This document shows positions 1-3,633 of a DNA stretch of 60,202 bases, in pieces. The notes under the pieces were generated by a model, which saw only the letters and a program-made list of their open reading frames with translations, did not search any database and was not told where the DNA came from. The translations under genes were made by a program, and so were the position numbers. Source of the stretch: Tistrella mobilis (lineage in GTDB: Bacteria; Pseudomonadota; Alphaproteobacteria; Tistrellales; Tistrellaceae); NCBI RefSeq assembly GCF_039634785.1, contig NZ_JBBIAB010000027.1:1-60202 (forward strand), in the 5' to 3' direction. The stretch's first letter is position 1; each line of letters begins with the position of its first letter.

Positions 1-10
1 GCCAGGCCGT

Positions 11-2689
11 TCATAAACCCGGCGGGTTTCCGTCGTCCACATTCTGTCCGCTCCCGTTTCCTCTGGCGCGGCAGAGAATCACAACGGATTCACCGGATTC
101 AATAACCTTCCGGACGGGCTCAGAGGTTTTAGGGTATCCAGCGGGATGCCAAAGTACATCGAAAGCATTTATTGAGATCAGAACGCGTTTTTTCTTTTTT
201 CTCCGCAACTGGATTGCACTCTCCAGGCGAGACAGCCTTGGCATATTGTGCCAAAGATCGCCATCAAGAGGCGATCCAGTCGAACAATTCCGGCAACCCC
301 AACCATGCGCGGCATATTCCTCCGCAAAAGCAATAAAATCGATCAACCCGTCCAGAACGGACGCAATTTCAGATGAAAAATTCAAATTCACAAAAAACGA
401 AACCGGATACGGAGAGTCATTATGAAGCGCCATTCGGGACAAGAGGCAGAATAAATAGCCACGCCCCATTCCACGAGTGGCCGATATGATAAAGACACGC
501 CGCGGACGATCAAGCCACGGACGACGCATCGACATCTTCATTCCGCGCCACAGTTCGTTCTTGTCGAACGTATTTGCCAGGCTGACCTGTATATCGACGC
601 GATGACGCCCGAACGATATCCGATCGGGCTTGTTGCCAGAACTGCCCTTCTCCTGATGAAAACGCACTGCCGTGTAGCGATCTGCCGGCAATTCTCGCCA
701 ACCCCGTTTCCAATCCCCCCACCCCCGCTTTACCTGATGGAGCAAAACGACAATTGATATGTGCTCAGCCAATCCCATTATACCATTGCAAAATGTATTA
801 ATATAATGTTGAATATGATTAGCGCGCTGTTCGCTGAATTCTTCATTCGAAATCAATTTCAAAAATTCAATAAATCTGTAGATAATTTCTATTATTGAAA
901 TAAAATAGTTATAAATTTCTTTCGATATATTTTCTTTTTTTGTTATATATTCTGAACTATACGATGAATTCAATTTCTTCCAAATTTCTAAGTGTCGTTC
1001 GAAATCTTCAGATCCGCGGTTCATAATATACAAGTTTGATCTCTCTTCTTCATCACCAAAACGAATCGTCCTAAGAAAAATTAATAGAGAATCCACTAAA
1101 TATAAAAGGCTTTCATTTTTTACAAGTTTTGATACTAGATCTTCTTCATCTTCTGGAAATTCACCATAGTGGATCAGATAGATCCCATACTCTACAAAAC
1201 TCTTGATTGCAAACGCCTCTCGCGCAGAAATAGAAGATTTCGAGTCCCGTATGACGATAACAGGGCGGCTTTTATATGGCCGTCGTGCAACGAATTCGCG
1301 AAATGGCCGCAAGACATCTGCCTCTTCCATCCCGATGCCCGCAAAAAGCACCGGATTACCGCCAAAGGTGACGTCCAACCCTTGCCGGAAGAGCATATTC
1401 CGCTGATGATCTCCCGCATAAGCGCGCTGATAATCCGTGCTCGTGATTACAAGATCATCATCCTGTGTCGCACGGCCATGAAGATGAATGACCTGAAGAT
1501 TATAATCTTCGGCATCAAACCCAAAATCGATTAAATTGGTCACCTGCGCCGGCGGAAGCGTCATGTCCCTGGCTCTGCCGCCGAGCGGGCCGATCCGTTC
1601 GACTGAATCCTCACCTGTTGCGAGATAACTACCTTCCGGAATCTGGAACCCGAGATCCTGGAAGAAACGTTCGATCTCAAGATCCCAGTTGAGAGTGGCG
1701 AAGCGCTTGACCTCCAGATCAAAGGCCATCATGTGCAACTGATCAAGCGCGAGAGGCACCATGCTACTCCTGGATCGCCATGTAGAATCGCCTGAATTCT
1801 TCCATATTTCCTCGAATTCATTACAAATATTCAAAATTGATAGTTTATTTTTGTCCTGAAGGAGTGAACTATAAAGAAGTGATACAATAAAATACCCTGA
1901 AACAGGAATTTCCCCAGGAGACATCCCAAGAAGTAATTCTGTTAATTTAGACGACAATTCCGTAGTTTTAGATATATCATTCTTATGTTTTTGACATATT
2001 TTGTTTAATTTATTAGCAGATTCCCTTCCGAATATTTTCACATAATTGCGATTTCTACGCTCAGAGGCGGTCCGGGACAACGGGGCCGCCTCCCCTAAAA
2101 TGCCGTCAAGGACTGACGGGTGCTGTGGAGAGCCGCGGAATTCCCTCAGGCCCGCCTGGTCAAGCAGCTTCTCGATGAAGCGATGTTCATCAATAACCTC
2201 GCGCATGATCATGCGCCTGAAGAGCGAGCGACCCCGCGCGCCACGCCCTCTCGCATCCATGTCCAGTGGGAGATTCGCGGCCGTCGCAGCCTTGGTCAGA
2301 TCTTCATCGGAAAGCGACAGCCAGAAATGTTCGCAAATCTCGAGCGCAAATGTCAGATCGCCCCCTCTCCATTCGCGCTTCTCGACATGATCAAGAATCG
2401 TCGTCAGGCGGTTTTTGATGCGCTCAGCATGCGGGCCACTGCTATCAAGTTTGATCTTTTGAATGACCCGGAGGTGGTCGATGCAGAGATCTGTCCAACT
2501 CACGCGCCCGTAGCTGGTCGACACCCCAGATCCGACCAGTGCCACCAGATTGCCGACATTGAGGGCCCGGTAGAGCAACAGGCGCCCCTGCTGCTCGATA
2601 TCCGCCGGGTCGAATGTCGATTCGACCCGCGTGTAGTTGTAAGCCCAGTCCTTCTCCAACGCCTCCGGTTTGCCTGCCTCTTGTGTCAT
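11..2689 (-). CDS. SIR2-STAND family protein, putative anti-phage NADase; C-terminus possibly truncated
   Basis: 892 residues. The N-terminal half is a SIR2-like NAD-hydrolysing domain: GSGVS (residues 53-57), TLNWDLEIE, HLHG with the catalytic His, and GIGMEEADVLRPF. After an AT-rich middle stretch, the last ~170 residues look like the start of a STAND NTPase: a P-loop-like ATRGMGRG (737-744, Arg743 where Lys is expected) and a Walker B-like VLISINAFD. Such fusions are known in phage defence, where the STAND half senses and the SIR2 half depletes NAD. The chosen ATG has TGGAGGGGG just upstream; an ATG 45 bases further upstream has no ribosome site. The STAND part ends far earlier than usual, at a stop 10 bases from the window edge, so the gene may be frameshifted. 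Parts are far more AT-rich than the rest of the window, which suggests transfer. Defence role is inferred. Confidence 0.75.
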   Translation of the reverse strand: MTQEAGKPEALEKDWAYNYTRVESTFDPADIEQQGRLLLYRALNVGNLVALVGSGVSTSYGRVSWTDLCIDHLRVIQKIKLDSSGPHAERIKNRLTTILDHVEKREWRGGDLTFALEICEHFWLSLSDEDLTKAATAANLPLDMDARGRGARGRSLFRRMIMREVIDEHRFIEKLLDQAGLREFRGSPQHPSVLDGILGEAAPLSRTASERRNRNYVKIFGRESANKLNKICQKHKNDISKTTELSSKLTELLLGMSPGEIPVSGYFIVSLLYSSLLQDKNKLSILNICNEFEEIWKNSGDSTWRSRSSMVPLALDQLHMMAFDLEVKRFATLNWDLEIERFFQDLGFQIPEGSYLATGEDSVERIGPLGGRARDMTLPPAQVTNLIDFGFDAEDYNLQVIHLHGRATQDDDLVITSTDYQRAYAGDHQRNMLFRQGLDVTFGGNPVLFAGIGMEEADVLRPFREFVARRPYKSRPVIVIRDSKSSISAREAFAIKSFVEYGIYLIHYGEFPEDEEDLVSKLVKNESLLYLVDSLLIFLRTIRFGDEEERSNLYIMNRGSEDFERHLEIWKKLNSSYSSEYITKKENISKEIYNYFISIIEIIYRFIEFLKLISNEEFSEQRANHIQHYINTFCNGIMGLAEHISIVVLLHQVKRGWGDWKRGWRELPADRYTAVRFHQEKGSSGNKPDRISFGRHRVDIQVSLANTFDKNELWRGMKMSMRRPWLDRPRRVFIISATRGMGRGYLFCLLSRMALHNDSPYPVSFFVNLNFSSEIASVLDGLIDFIAFAEEYAAHGWGCRNCSTGSPLDGDLWHNMPRLSRLESAIQLRRKKKKRVLISINAFDVLWHPAGYPKTSEPVRKVIESGESVVILCRARGNGSGQNVDDGNPPGL

Positions 2690-2931
2690 TGCCCCCTCCA
2701 GAACATCCCGCGCCAATACCGGTATCGATATCATGATTAAATGGTCACTCTATTTATAGTGGAATAAACTGCCTGAATCGAAATTCGTATCCCCGTTGCC
2801 CGAGGTAAAACGTGCGCGACCAGAGGCCGGGGCTGGATGTCCCGCCCCGCGCCATCTACCATCGCCTGCACCCCTGCGTATGCTGGCGCGGCGATCCGGA
2901 TCGTCGCGCCGCACAGGGGAGTCTGCGCGTG

Positions 2932-3633
2932 ATGCATGTCTATATCGATGGTGCCCGGCAGCCGCTGGGCGCCGGGTTCGACGACTATCTGAACCCTGGC
3001 CGCACGGCGGTGGTGTCGATCGATCTGCATCGGGGCCATCTGGAGGATGATCCCGACTGCCCCTGCCCCGCCCCCAGGGCGCGGGCGATCGTCGGGGGCG
3101 TGAACCGGTTTCACGCCGCGGCGCGGGCGGCCGGCGTGCCGGTGATCCATGTCCGCAGCACGCTGCGCAAGGGGGGCGTCGACGACATCGCCGGCATTCC
3201 ATCGGCCTGGCGGCGGGTGTTCCCGCTTCATGTCGGCCCGATCCCCAATTCCGACGGCCATGCGATCGAAGGCTCGCGCTGGACGGAGTTCGTGACCGAG
3301 GTCGACGATCGCGATCTGGTGGTTTCGGGCAAGAAGCGGCTTTCGGCCTTCTACCCCACCGATCTCGACTTCCTGTTGCGCAATATGGGCGTCGAGGCGC
3401 TGATCCTGAACGGCTGCCTGGCCGATTGCTGCGTGCTCAACACCGCCTTCGACGGCTCCAATATGGGCTATCGGGTCACGGTGCTGCGCGATCTGGTGGC
3501 GGGCACGACCGAGGATCTGGAAGCCGCATCGCTGAAGATCGTCGCCATGCATCTGGGGCTGGTCGCCGATGCGGAGGATCTGCTCGGCGCCTGGCAGGAG
3601 CGGCAGCCCGCTGCAAAAAAACGGGCGGGATGA
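2932..3633 (+). CDS. Isochorismatase-family cysteine hydrolase
   Basis: 233 residues, the usual length for the family. The catalytic triad is visible: Asp in VVSIDLHRGH, Lys in SGKKRLSAF, and Cys in NGCLADCCVLNTAF. The family hydrolyses isochorismate, N-carbamoyl amines or other amides in the cytoplasm; the substrate here cannot be told. The ATG is preceded by AGGGGAG; the frame is open upstream for 40 codons, but that extension has no family similarity. A GTG three bases upstream is an alternative start. The gene stands alone, divergent from the SIR2 gene and convergent with fruA. Its last codons form one arm of the fruA terminator hairpin. Confidence 0.88.
   Translation: MHVYIDGARQPLGAGFDDYLNPGRTAVVSIDLHRGHLEDDPDCPCPAPRARAIVGGVNRFHAAARAAGVPVIHVRSTLRKGGVDDIAGIPSAWRRVFPLHVGPIPNSDGHAIEGSRWTEFVTEVDDRDLVVSGKKRLSAFYPTDLDFLLRNMGVEALILNGCLADCCVLNTAFDGSNMGYRVTVLRDLVAGTTEDLEAASLKIVAMHLGLVADAEDLLGAWQERQPAAKKRAG

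What the first reader, a model, noticed from the sequence alone, without database searches (positions are those of the whole stretch)
11..2689. SIR2-STAND defence-type gene at the window edge
The protein joins an apparently intact SIR2 NADase to the start of a STAND NTPase. This architecture is known from anti-phage systems. Nothing else in the window is defence-related, so the neighbours beyond the left edge decide whether it sits in a defence island.
Basis: partly seen in the sequence, partly recalled or inferred. Interest (0 to 1): 0.55.

Follow-up and report, generated by a model that had tools for sequence, protein, structure and literature searches.

The report
Broken SIR2 immune receptor-like gene
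A bacterial gene resembling an NAD-destroying immune receptor has been cut in two by a jumping DNA element; its relatives form a little-studied family whose energy-switch domain has lost the usual magnesium-binding letters.

Summary
In detail: the ORF has an N-terminal SIR2 domain with the catalytic-type Asn and His, then the start of a STAND domain. The reading of the edge changes. Window 1-121 is the end of a multi-copy DDE insertion sequence (IS), not gene sequence. The missing 3' half lies at the end of contig C7 beside the other IS end, with the same 3 bp (TCT) at both junctions and matching frames. In a congener and a same-species genome the two flanks lie 3.4 kb apart around other genes. 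So this is a low-GC, strain-variable SIR2-STAND-TPR gene of about 1,580 codons, broken by an IS. Its neighbours look like biotin, fructose-PTS and isochorismatase-family genes; no defence island is evident. In 34 aligned homologues (29 alphaproteobacterial by label) SIR2 Asn and His are kept 34 of 34, the Walker A Ser/Thr is replaced 34 of 34 (33 Gly, 1 Tyr), and the Walker B Asp position has no acid 34 of 34. Walker A Lys/Arg is kept. Characterised Avs5 differs: its Walker A is canonical. Best reading: an NLR-like NADase sensor whose switch binds nucleotide but probably hydrolyses it poorly or not at all. The copy here is probably dead; anti-phage function is inferred.

The parts
122..2689 (-). 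5' part of the SIR2-STAND-TPR gene (856 codons from ATG 2689); the 3' part lies on contig C7 (L034:9255-11420, minus, 722 codons)
710..2605 (-). SIR2 domain including a long helical insert between the GSG loop and the catalytic-type Asn (P0001 residues 44-675)
1688..1690 (-). codon of the catalytic-type Asn (T-L-N-W-D), Asn in 34 of 34 homologues
1478..1480 (-). codon of the catalytic-type His (second His of HLHG), His in 34 of 34 homologues
122..607 (-). start of the STAND (NB-ARC-like) domain, cut by the IS just after the Walker-B-like strand
458..475 (-). P-loop RGMGRG: Gly replaces the Walker A Ser/Thr (Gly 33, Tyr 1 of 34 homologues)
158..172 (-). Walker-B-like strand end INAFD: Asn at the Asp position; no D/E there in 34 of 34 homologues
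122..124 (.). 3 bp (TCT on the coding strand) repeated at L034:11421-11423 beyond the other IS end: presumed target-site duplication
1..121 (.). end of a multi-copy DDE-transposase insertion sequence (IS5-like by recall); holds the in-frame stop of the truncated ORF at 11-13
2812..3633 (+). neighbour: isochorismatase-family hydrolase, divergent; flank shared with relatives from window 2828/2829 onwards

Best explanation
The feature is the 5' half of a horizontally acquired single-gene, NLR-like NADase receptor: SIR2 effector, NB-ARC/STAND switch, winged helix, TPR sensor. An insertion sequence has interrupted it inside the switch domain, so this copy is probably non-functional. In the intact family the TPR array would sense an invader or stress signal, the switch would let the protein assemble, and the SIR2 domain would then destroy NAD+ and stop the infected cell. 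Because the Mg-ligand positions of Walker A (Ser/Thr) and Walker B (Asp) are replaced in every member examined, the switch most likely works by nucleotide binding or exchange rather than efficient ATP hydrolysis. Shown here: architecture, IS split, strain variability, family-wide residues. Inferred: NAD+ cleavage, anti-phage role, loss of hydrolysis, death of this copy.
For: The contig end is an IS end. The C-terminal half is at the C7 end beside the other IS end. TCT lies on both sides and the frames match. The flanks lie 3.4 kb apart in a congener and in a same-species genome. GC is 0.474 and 0.568 for the two gene parts against 0.69 for the flanks. SIR2 fold: DSR2, ThsA, KomC and Avs5. Switch and TPR fold: STAND-TPR 6mfv, Foldseek E 2e-7; NB-ARC of NRC1, Z 17.8 over 309 residues; TPR proteins up to Z 26.6. 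Residue counts. One homologue locus (L055, Ahrensia) has a strong Septu PtuA hit about 2 kb downstream.
Against: I found no test of any member of this family. PADLOC gives only weak hits at E<=1: ThsA, LmuA, Dsr1, PDC-S25, and generic SIR2 and TPR models. Homologue neighbourhoods are not clearly defence islands: of 134 neighbour proteins, 20 scanned singly gave 1 with a PADLOC hit at 1e-5, though the whole set matched 203 PADLOC families (25 shown) that I could not place one by one. Adenylate kinases use a GKG P-loop and are active (recalled), so the Walker A change alone does not prove loss of catalysis. The 3 bp repeated here (TCT) departs from the T-N-A next to this IS at 8 of 8 other left ends and 9 of 9 other right ends checked, and the C32 copy has TTA on one side and TCA on the other. 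The IS could be polymorphic in the culture, which the assembly cannot show.
Confidence: 0.7

Rival explanations
1. The gene is intact in the organism and only the contig edge cuts it.
For: The window is a contig end.
Against: The last 121 bases occur at 12 listed places, 11 of them within about 400 bases of a contig end. The rest of the gene continues next to the element's other end with the same 3 bp and matching frame.
Confidence: 0.03
2. The family is a signalling or metabolic regulator using SIR2 as an NAD-dependent sensor or deacylase, not a phage-defence NADase.
For: No experimental data; no clear island; the gene sits singly among housekeeping-like genes here.
Against: The SIR2 part is nearest in fold to defence NADases (DSR2, ThsA, KomC, Avs5). 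Distribution is sparse: 6 of 385 genomes of the class including its own, 4 of 289 relatives including its own. The locus is low in GC and differs within the species.
Confidence: 0.2
3. The STAND domain is a working ATPase with an unusual GKG-type P-loop, as in adenylate kinases (recalled), with another acid replacing the Walker B Asp.
For: Lys/Arg kept in 34 of 34; three residues after the missing Asp there is Glu in 16 and Asp in 11 of 34. PaAvs5-1 itself has a reduced Walker B, IIFIE (PMC12931631, passages). Ser/Thr stands one residue after the Gly in 12 of 34.
Against: No acid at the Asp position in 34 of 34; the later Ser/Thr is absent in 22 of 34; the later acid is absent in 7 of 34.
Confidence: 0.25
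4. The truncated 892-residue product (SIR2 plus half a switch) still acts, as a sensor-less or constitutive form.
For: The SIR2 region is complete and its frame is open to a stop within the IS.
Against: In PaAvs5 the C-terminal repeat domain is reported essential for activation (PMC12931631, passage). A constitutive NADase should be selected against (inference).
Confidence: 0.07

Closest known systems
Avs5 / AVAST type 5 (SIR2-STAND; PaAvs5, EfAvs5)
   Same: N-terminal SIR2_2 effector, STAND middle, C-terminal helical repeats; the SIR2 part superposes on 9nc9 (Z 14.8) and 9jap (Z 14.1).
   Different: PaAvs5-1 has Walker A GPAGSGKT, and the Avs5 tested there have nSTAND3 PF20720 (PMC12931631, passages). 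This family has GxG[KR]G in 32 of 34, no nSTAND3 hit at E<=1 in 6 proteins, and no Avs5 chain among the PDB sequences matched by its profiles at E<=1.
DSR2 and ThsA defence sirtuins
   Same: SIR2 fold with the same kind of Asn/His (DSR2 Z 19.6, ThsA Z 19.4).
   Different: The match covers the SIR2 part only; they lack this kind of STAND-TPR half (recalled).
SAMD9 family
   Same: SIR2-like domain, STAND-like domain with an altered P-loop, TPR array (PMC5445408, passages); 9zjs among Foldseek matches, E 5.2e-5.
   Different: SAMD9 changes the Lys to Gly (GG[TS]) and has AlbA_2 and OB domains. Here Lys/Arg is kept and Ser/Thr is lost, with no AlbA_2 or OB hit at E<=1 in 6 proteins.
iSTAND / iSTAND2 inactive STAND modules
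   Same: STAND modules described as inactive (PMC8195603, PMC7159879, passages).
   Different: Those are components of MoxR-vWA ternary systems (same passages). Here a SIR2 effector is fused in one chain and no such partners were recognised, in a partial check.
STAND-TPR protein 6mfv
   Same: Best Foldseek match of the switch-plus-TPR half (E 2e-7).
   Different: Low global TM-score (0.21 and 0.29); no SIR2 effector known to me (recalled).

Membership tests
SIR2-type defence NADase domain | SIR2 fold with catalytic-type Asn and His | tested here: met
   (Asn 34 of 34, His 34 of 34)
SIR2-type defence NADase domain | NAD+ hydrolysis | not testable with these tools
   needs an enzyme assay
Avs5 (AVAST type 5) | SIR2 effector, STAND and C-terminal repeats in one chain | tested here: met
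   for homologues; in this genome the chain is split by an IS
Avs5 (AVAST type 5) | nSTAND3 domain (PF20720) | tested here: not met
   no Pfam hit at E<=1 in the window part, the C7 part and 4 homologues
Avs5 (AVAST type 5) | canonical Walker A GxxxxGK[ST] | tested here: not met
   Ser/Thr replaced in 34 of 34 homologues and in the window; Avs5 motif from PMC12931631 (passage)
Avs5 (AVAST type 5) | match to a PADLOC Avs model | tested here: not met
   hits at E<=1 in 6 proteins were ThsA, LmuA, Dsr1, PDC-S25, SIR2 and TPR models only
Avs5 (AVAST type 5) | phage-triggered NAD+ loss and protection | not testable with these tools
   needs experiment
STAND superfamily (NB-ARC-like) | P-loop domain, helical part, winged helix, repeats | tested here: met
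   model of the L052 half: NB-ARC 8bv0 Z 17.8 over 309 residues, 6mfv; TPR_12 in Pfam; MHD-like His 32 of 33
STAND superfamily (NB-ARC-like) | canonical Walker A and B motifs | tested here: not met
iSTAND / iSTAND2 | genomic partners MoxR and vWA | tested here: inconclusive
   none recognised, but only by eye on the C7 end and in the 25 of 68 Pfam families shown for the window
SAMD9 family | AlbA_2 and OB-fold domains, GG[TS] P-loop | tested here: not met
   no such Pfam hits at E<=1 in 6 proteins; P-loop keeps Lys/Arg 34 of 34

The most novel reading that the evidence does not exclude
A so far unnamed lineage of bacterial NLR-like SIR2 receptors works with a STAND switch that binds nucleotide without Mg-dependent hydrolysis. 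It would separate nucleotide binding from hydrolysis in immune-receptor activation and be a bacterial parallel to the altered P-loop of SAMD9.
Probability: 0.45. Interest if true: 0.65.

Novelty: new variant of a known kind. Interest (0 to 1): 0.45.

Why it matters
PaAvs5, a SIR2-STAND receptor, needs its Walker motifs for immunity. A family that keeps the SIR2 Asn/His in 34 of 34 members but has lost both Mg-ligand positions in 34 of 34 would directly test whether ATP hydrolysis is needed at all. The IS-broken copy, at a site that differs within one species, shows how such genes are gained and lost.

Tried and rejected
Rejected: that the frame at window 14-121 is part of the STAND domain (it is IS sequence). 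Not supported: a defence island around this gene. Tried without result: phage records (no match); NCBIfam (0 families for the gene); PDB sequence profiles for a STAND or Avs5 match (SIR2, TPR and chance-like rows only); five paper searches, whose listings showed nothing that describes this family. That library holds only open-licence papers, so the absence is weak evidence. Avs5 was not among the 50 Foldseek rows shown; it appears only in the VIA second look.

Neighbourhoods of homologues: 147 neighbour ORFs were listed by a crude longest-ORF rule; 134 were scanned (13 left out to stay within limits: 2 of L079, 1 of L082, 4 of L083, 6 of L084). One search matched 203 PADLOC families, 25 shown; its first member had a DrmD hit (E 3e-51) that Pfam reads as IstB of an IS21 element. 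Twenty proteins tested singly gave 1 hit (RT-Protease_XI at L068). A search of the 28 genomes or records behind these loci for one PtuA model placed one match, next to the family gene in L055; the other Septu-like members remain unplaced.

Rows dropped: L053 and L081 (near-duplicates) and L085 (short match) before the 34-row family (31 rows plus L015, L016, L019). Of those 31 rows, 28 went into A4 with the window part and 27 into A5. The 34 fall into 31 clusters at 70% identity. Some members are incomplete (31 of 34 have a residue at the GSG position).

Full report
Observation. The window is the whole of contig C27 (60,202 bases) of a 6.16-Mb genome in 62 contigs. A minus-strand ORF runs from ATG 2734 (or, more likely, ATG 2689, preceded by GGAGG) to a stop at 11-13. 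Pfam finds SIR2_2 (E 6.7e-11) and nothing else at E<=1. PADLOC gives only weak ThsA hits. The genome is alphaproteobacterial: G246 and G221, told as the same class, have contigs of the same lengths as two records titled Alphaproteobacteria bacterium.

The edge is an insertion sequence. Window 1-121 matches 12 listed places in the same genome; 11 of them lie within about 400 bases of a contig end, the twelfth (76% identical) is internal. A fuller copy on C32 encodes a DDE_Tnp_1 transposase; IS5-like is my recall. The gene sequence therefore stops at window 122, just after the Walker-B-like strand.

The other half. A profile of homologues finds two pieces in the genome: the window and the end of contig C7. 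The last ~121 bases of C7 recur as the other end of the same element (12 places listed). TCT flanks the element on both sides and the frames match. Against this, other copies have T-N-A next to the element (8 of 8 left ends and 9 of 9 right ends checked), so this target is unusual, and the C32 copy has unlike triplets on its two sides; three matching bases alone could be chance. The C7 part (722 codons from the junction) carries TPR_12 (E 4.4e-11) and takes up the homologues' alignment where the window part stops. With the 856 codons of the window this makes about 1,580, against 1,570 in the A. lipoferum plasmid protein WP_162488318.1.

Independent check by synteny. In a congener (G001) the C7 side (L034 1952-9221) and the window from 2828 on lie on one contig at 93% identity, 3.4 kb apart; between them are, by my reading of the ORFs, a TonB-dependent receptor and an MFS transporter. 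In a same-species genome (G289) the flanks are 96-97% identical, end at L034 9221 and window 2829, and enclose the same pair. So the two contigs adjoin, and the SIR2-STAND gene occupies a site that differs within the species. GC is 0.474 and 0.568 for the two gene parts against 0.69 for the flanks. Neighbours are biotin-synthesis genes by my reading on one side, and an isochorismatase-family hydrolase and fructose-PTS genes on the other. A scan of 38 other window ORFs gave 6 PADLOC families at 1e-5, each in one ORF (two SspH models, mad8, WYL, HerA, SoFic); I did not place them. The Pfam families shown (25 of 68) are mostly of housekeeping type. No island is evident.

The family. One genome-collection scan gave 34 loci; with three rows dropped and three proteins found earlier added, 34 were aligned. 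By record label 29 of 34 are alphaproteobacterial (placement of the names is mine); the others are labelled Binataceae, Granulosicoccaceae, Mesoflavibacter, Derxia and Bryobacter. In 385 genomes of the class 6 including its own match at 1e-10, one of them (G171) over a TPR stretch only. Residues: SIR2 Asn 34 of 34, His 34 of 34. Walker A Gly-x-Gly 34 and 33 of 34, Lys/Arg 34 of 34 (27 K, 7 R), Ser/Thr position Gly 33 and Tyr 1. Walker B Asp position N 22, S 6, G 2, H, Y, C, T 1 each. An acid stands three residues on in 27 of 34. An MHD-like His in the winged helix is kept in 32 of 33 (the label MHD is recalled). Ser/Thr one residue after the Gly occurs in 12 of 34, so the motif is not simply shifted.

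Structure. The window part was modelled at mean pLDDT 71, the STAND-WH-TPR half of homologue L052 at 76 with pTM 0.84. The SIR2 part (residues 44-675, with a long helical insert) fits DSR2 (Z 19.6, 272 residues, 3.3 A), ThsA (19.4), a KomBC mutant complex (18.0), FAM118B (15.8) and Avs5 (14.8 and 14.1) in the VIA second look; Foldseek's own best was E 6.8e-3. The second half matches a STAND-TPR protein (6mfv, E 2e-7) and SAMD9 (9zjs, E 5e-5) by Foldseek. By VIA it fits the NB-ARC module of plant NRC1 (8bv0, Z 17.8, 309 residues), listed below 49 rows that are mostly TPR or other helical-repeat proteins. The P-loop-like segment sits between the domain's first strand and helix, as a P-loop should.

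Mechanism. PaAvs5 needs its SIR2 activity, its Walker A and Walker-B-like residues and its repeat domain (PMC12931631, passages). By analogy the intact family would sense through the TPRs, assemble through the switch and cut NAD+. The replaced Mg-ligand positions suggest nucleotide binding or exchange without efficient hydrolysis. Precedents for altered STAND switches are SAMD9 (Lys to Gly; PMC5445408, passages) and iSTAND/iSTAND2 (PMC8195603 and PMC7159879, passages). Against it, adenylate kinases have an active GKG P-loop (recalled), and PaAvs5-1 itself works with a reduced Walker B. For association with defence, one homologue locus (L055) has a Septu PtuA about 2 kb downstream, but 20 other neighbours tested singly gave one hit. 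The copy in this genome no longer has its switch and sensor in one chain and is most likely dead.

Verdict. Not a plain SIR2-STAND defence gene at an edge, but an IS-broken member of an apparently uncharacterised SIR2-pseudoSTAND-TPR family (papers searched). It is a new variant of a known kind; its function is untested.

Noticed in passing
window 1-121; L007:1-245 (contig C13): The insertion sequence is listed at a dozen places, and on C13 two of its ends lie head to tail (92% and 99% alike to the window's), as if one copy had inserted beside or into another; it seems to cause many of the assembly breaks.
   Followed up: partly
L051:8214-11587 and L093:5334-8638: The site between the bioA-like and isochorismatase-like genes carries a TonB-receptor-like and an MFS-like gene in a congener and in a same-species genome, and the SIR2-STAND gene here, with borders at the same bases.
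   Followed up: partly
window (one or more of 38 ORFs scanned): PADLOC SspH (E 1.6e-62) and mad8 (E 8.9e-41) match some ORF; which one, and whether it has to do with defence, was not resolved.
   Followed up: no
L055:12837-15194: A strong PtuA (Septu) match lies about 2 kb downstream of the family member in Ahrensia sp. R2A130.
   Followed up: partly
L015:16789-19263: In Azospirillum lipoferum 4B the SIR2 family gene is followed by an 824-residue hypothetical protein that looks patatin-like by eye; it is not next to the gene in this genome.
   Followed up: no
G289 (same species): A 6.5-Mb genome in 5 contigs with a 3.92-Mb contig; the sizes recall Tistrella mobilis (recall only, not checked).
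   Followed up: no
L052 and L053: Near-identical matches are binned as Binataceae and as Xanthobacteraceae in one MAG set, so the taxon of that member is uncertain.
   Followed up: no
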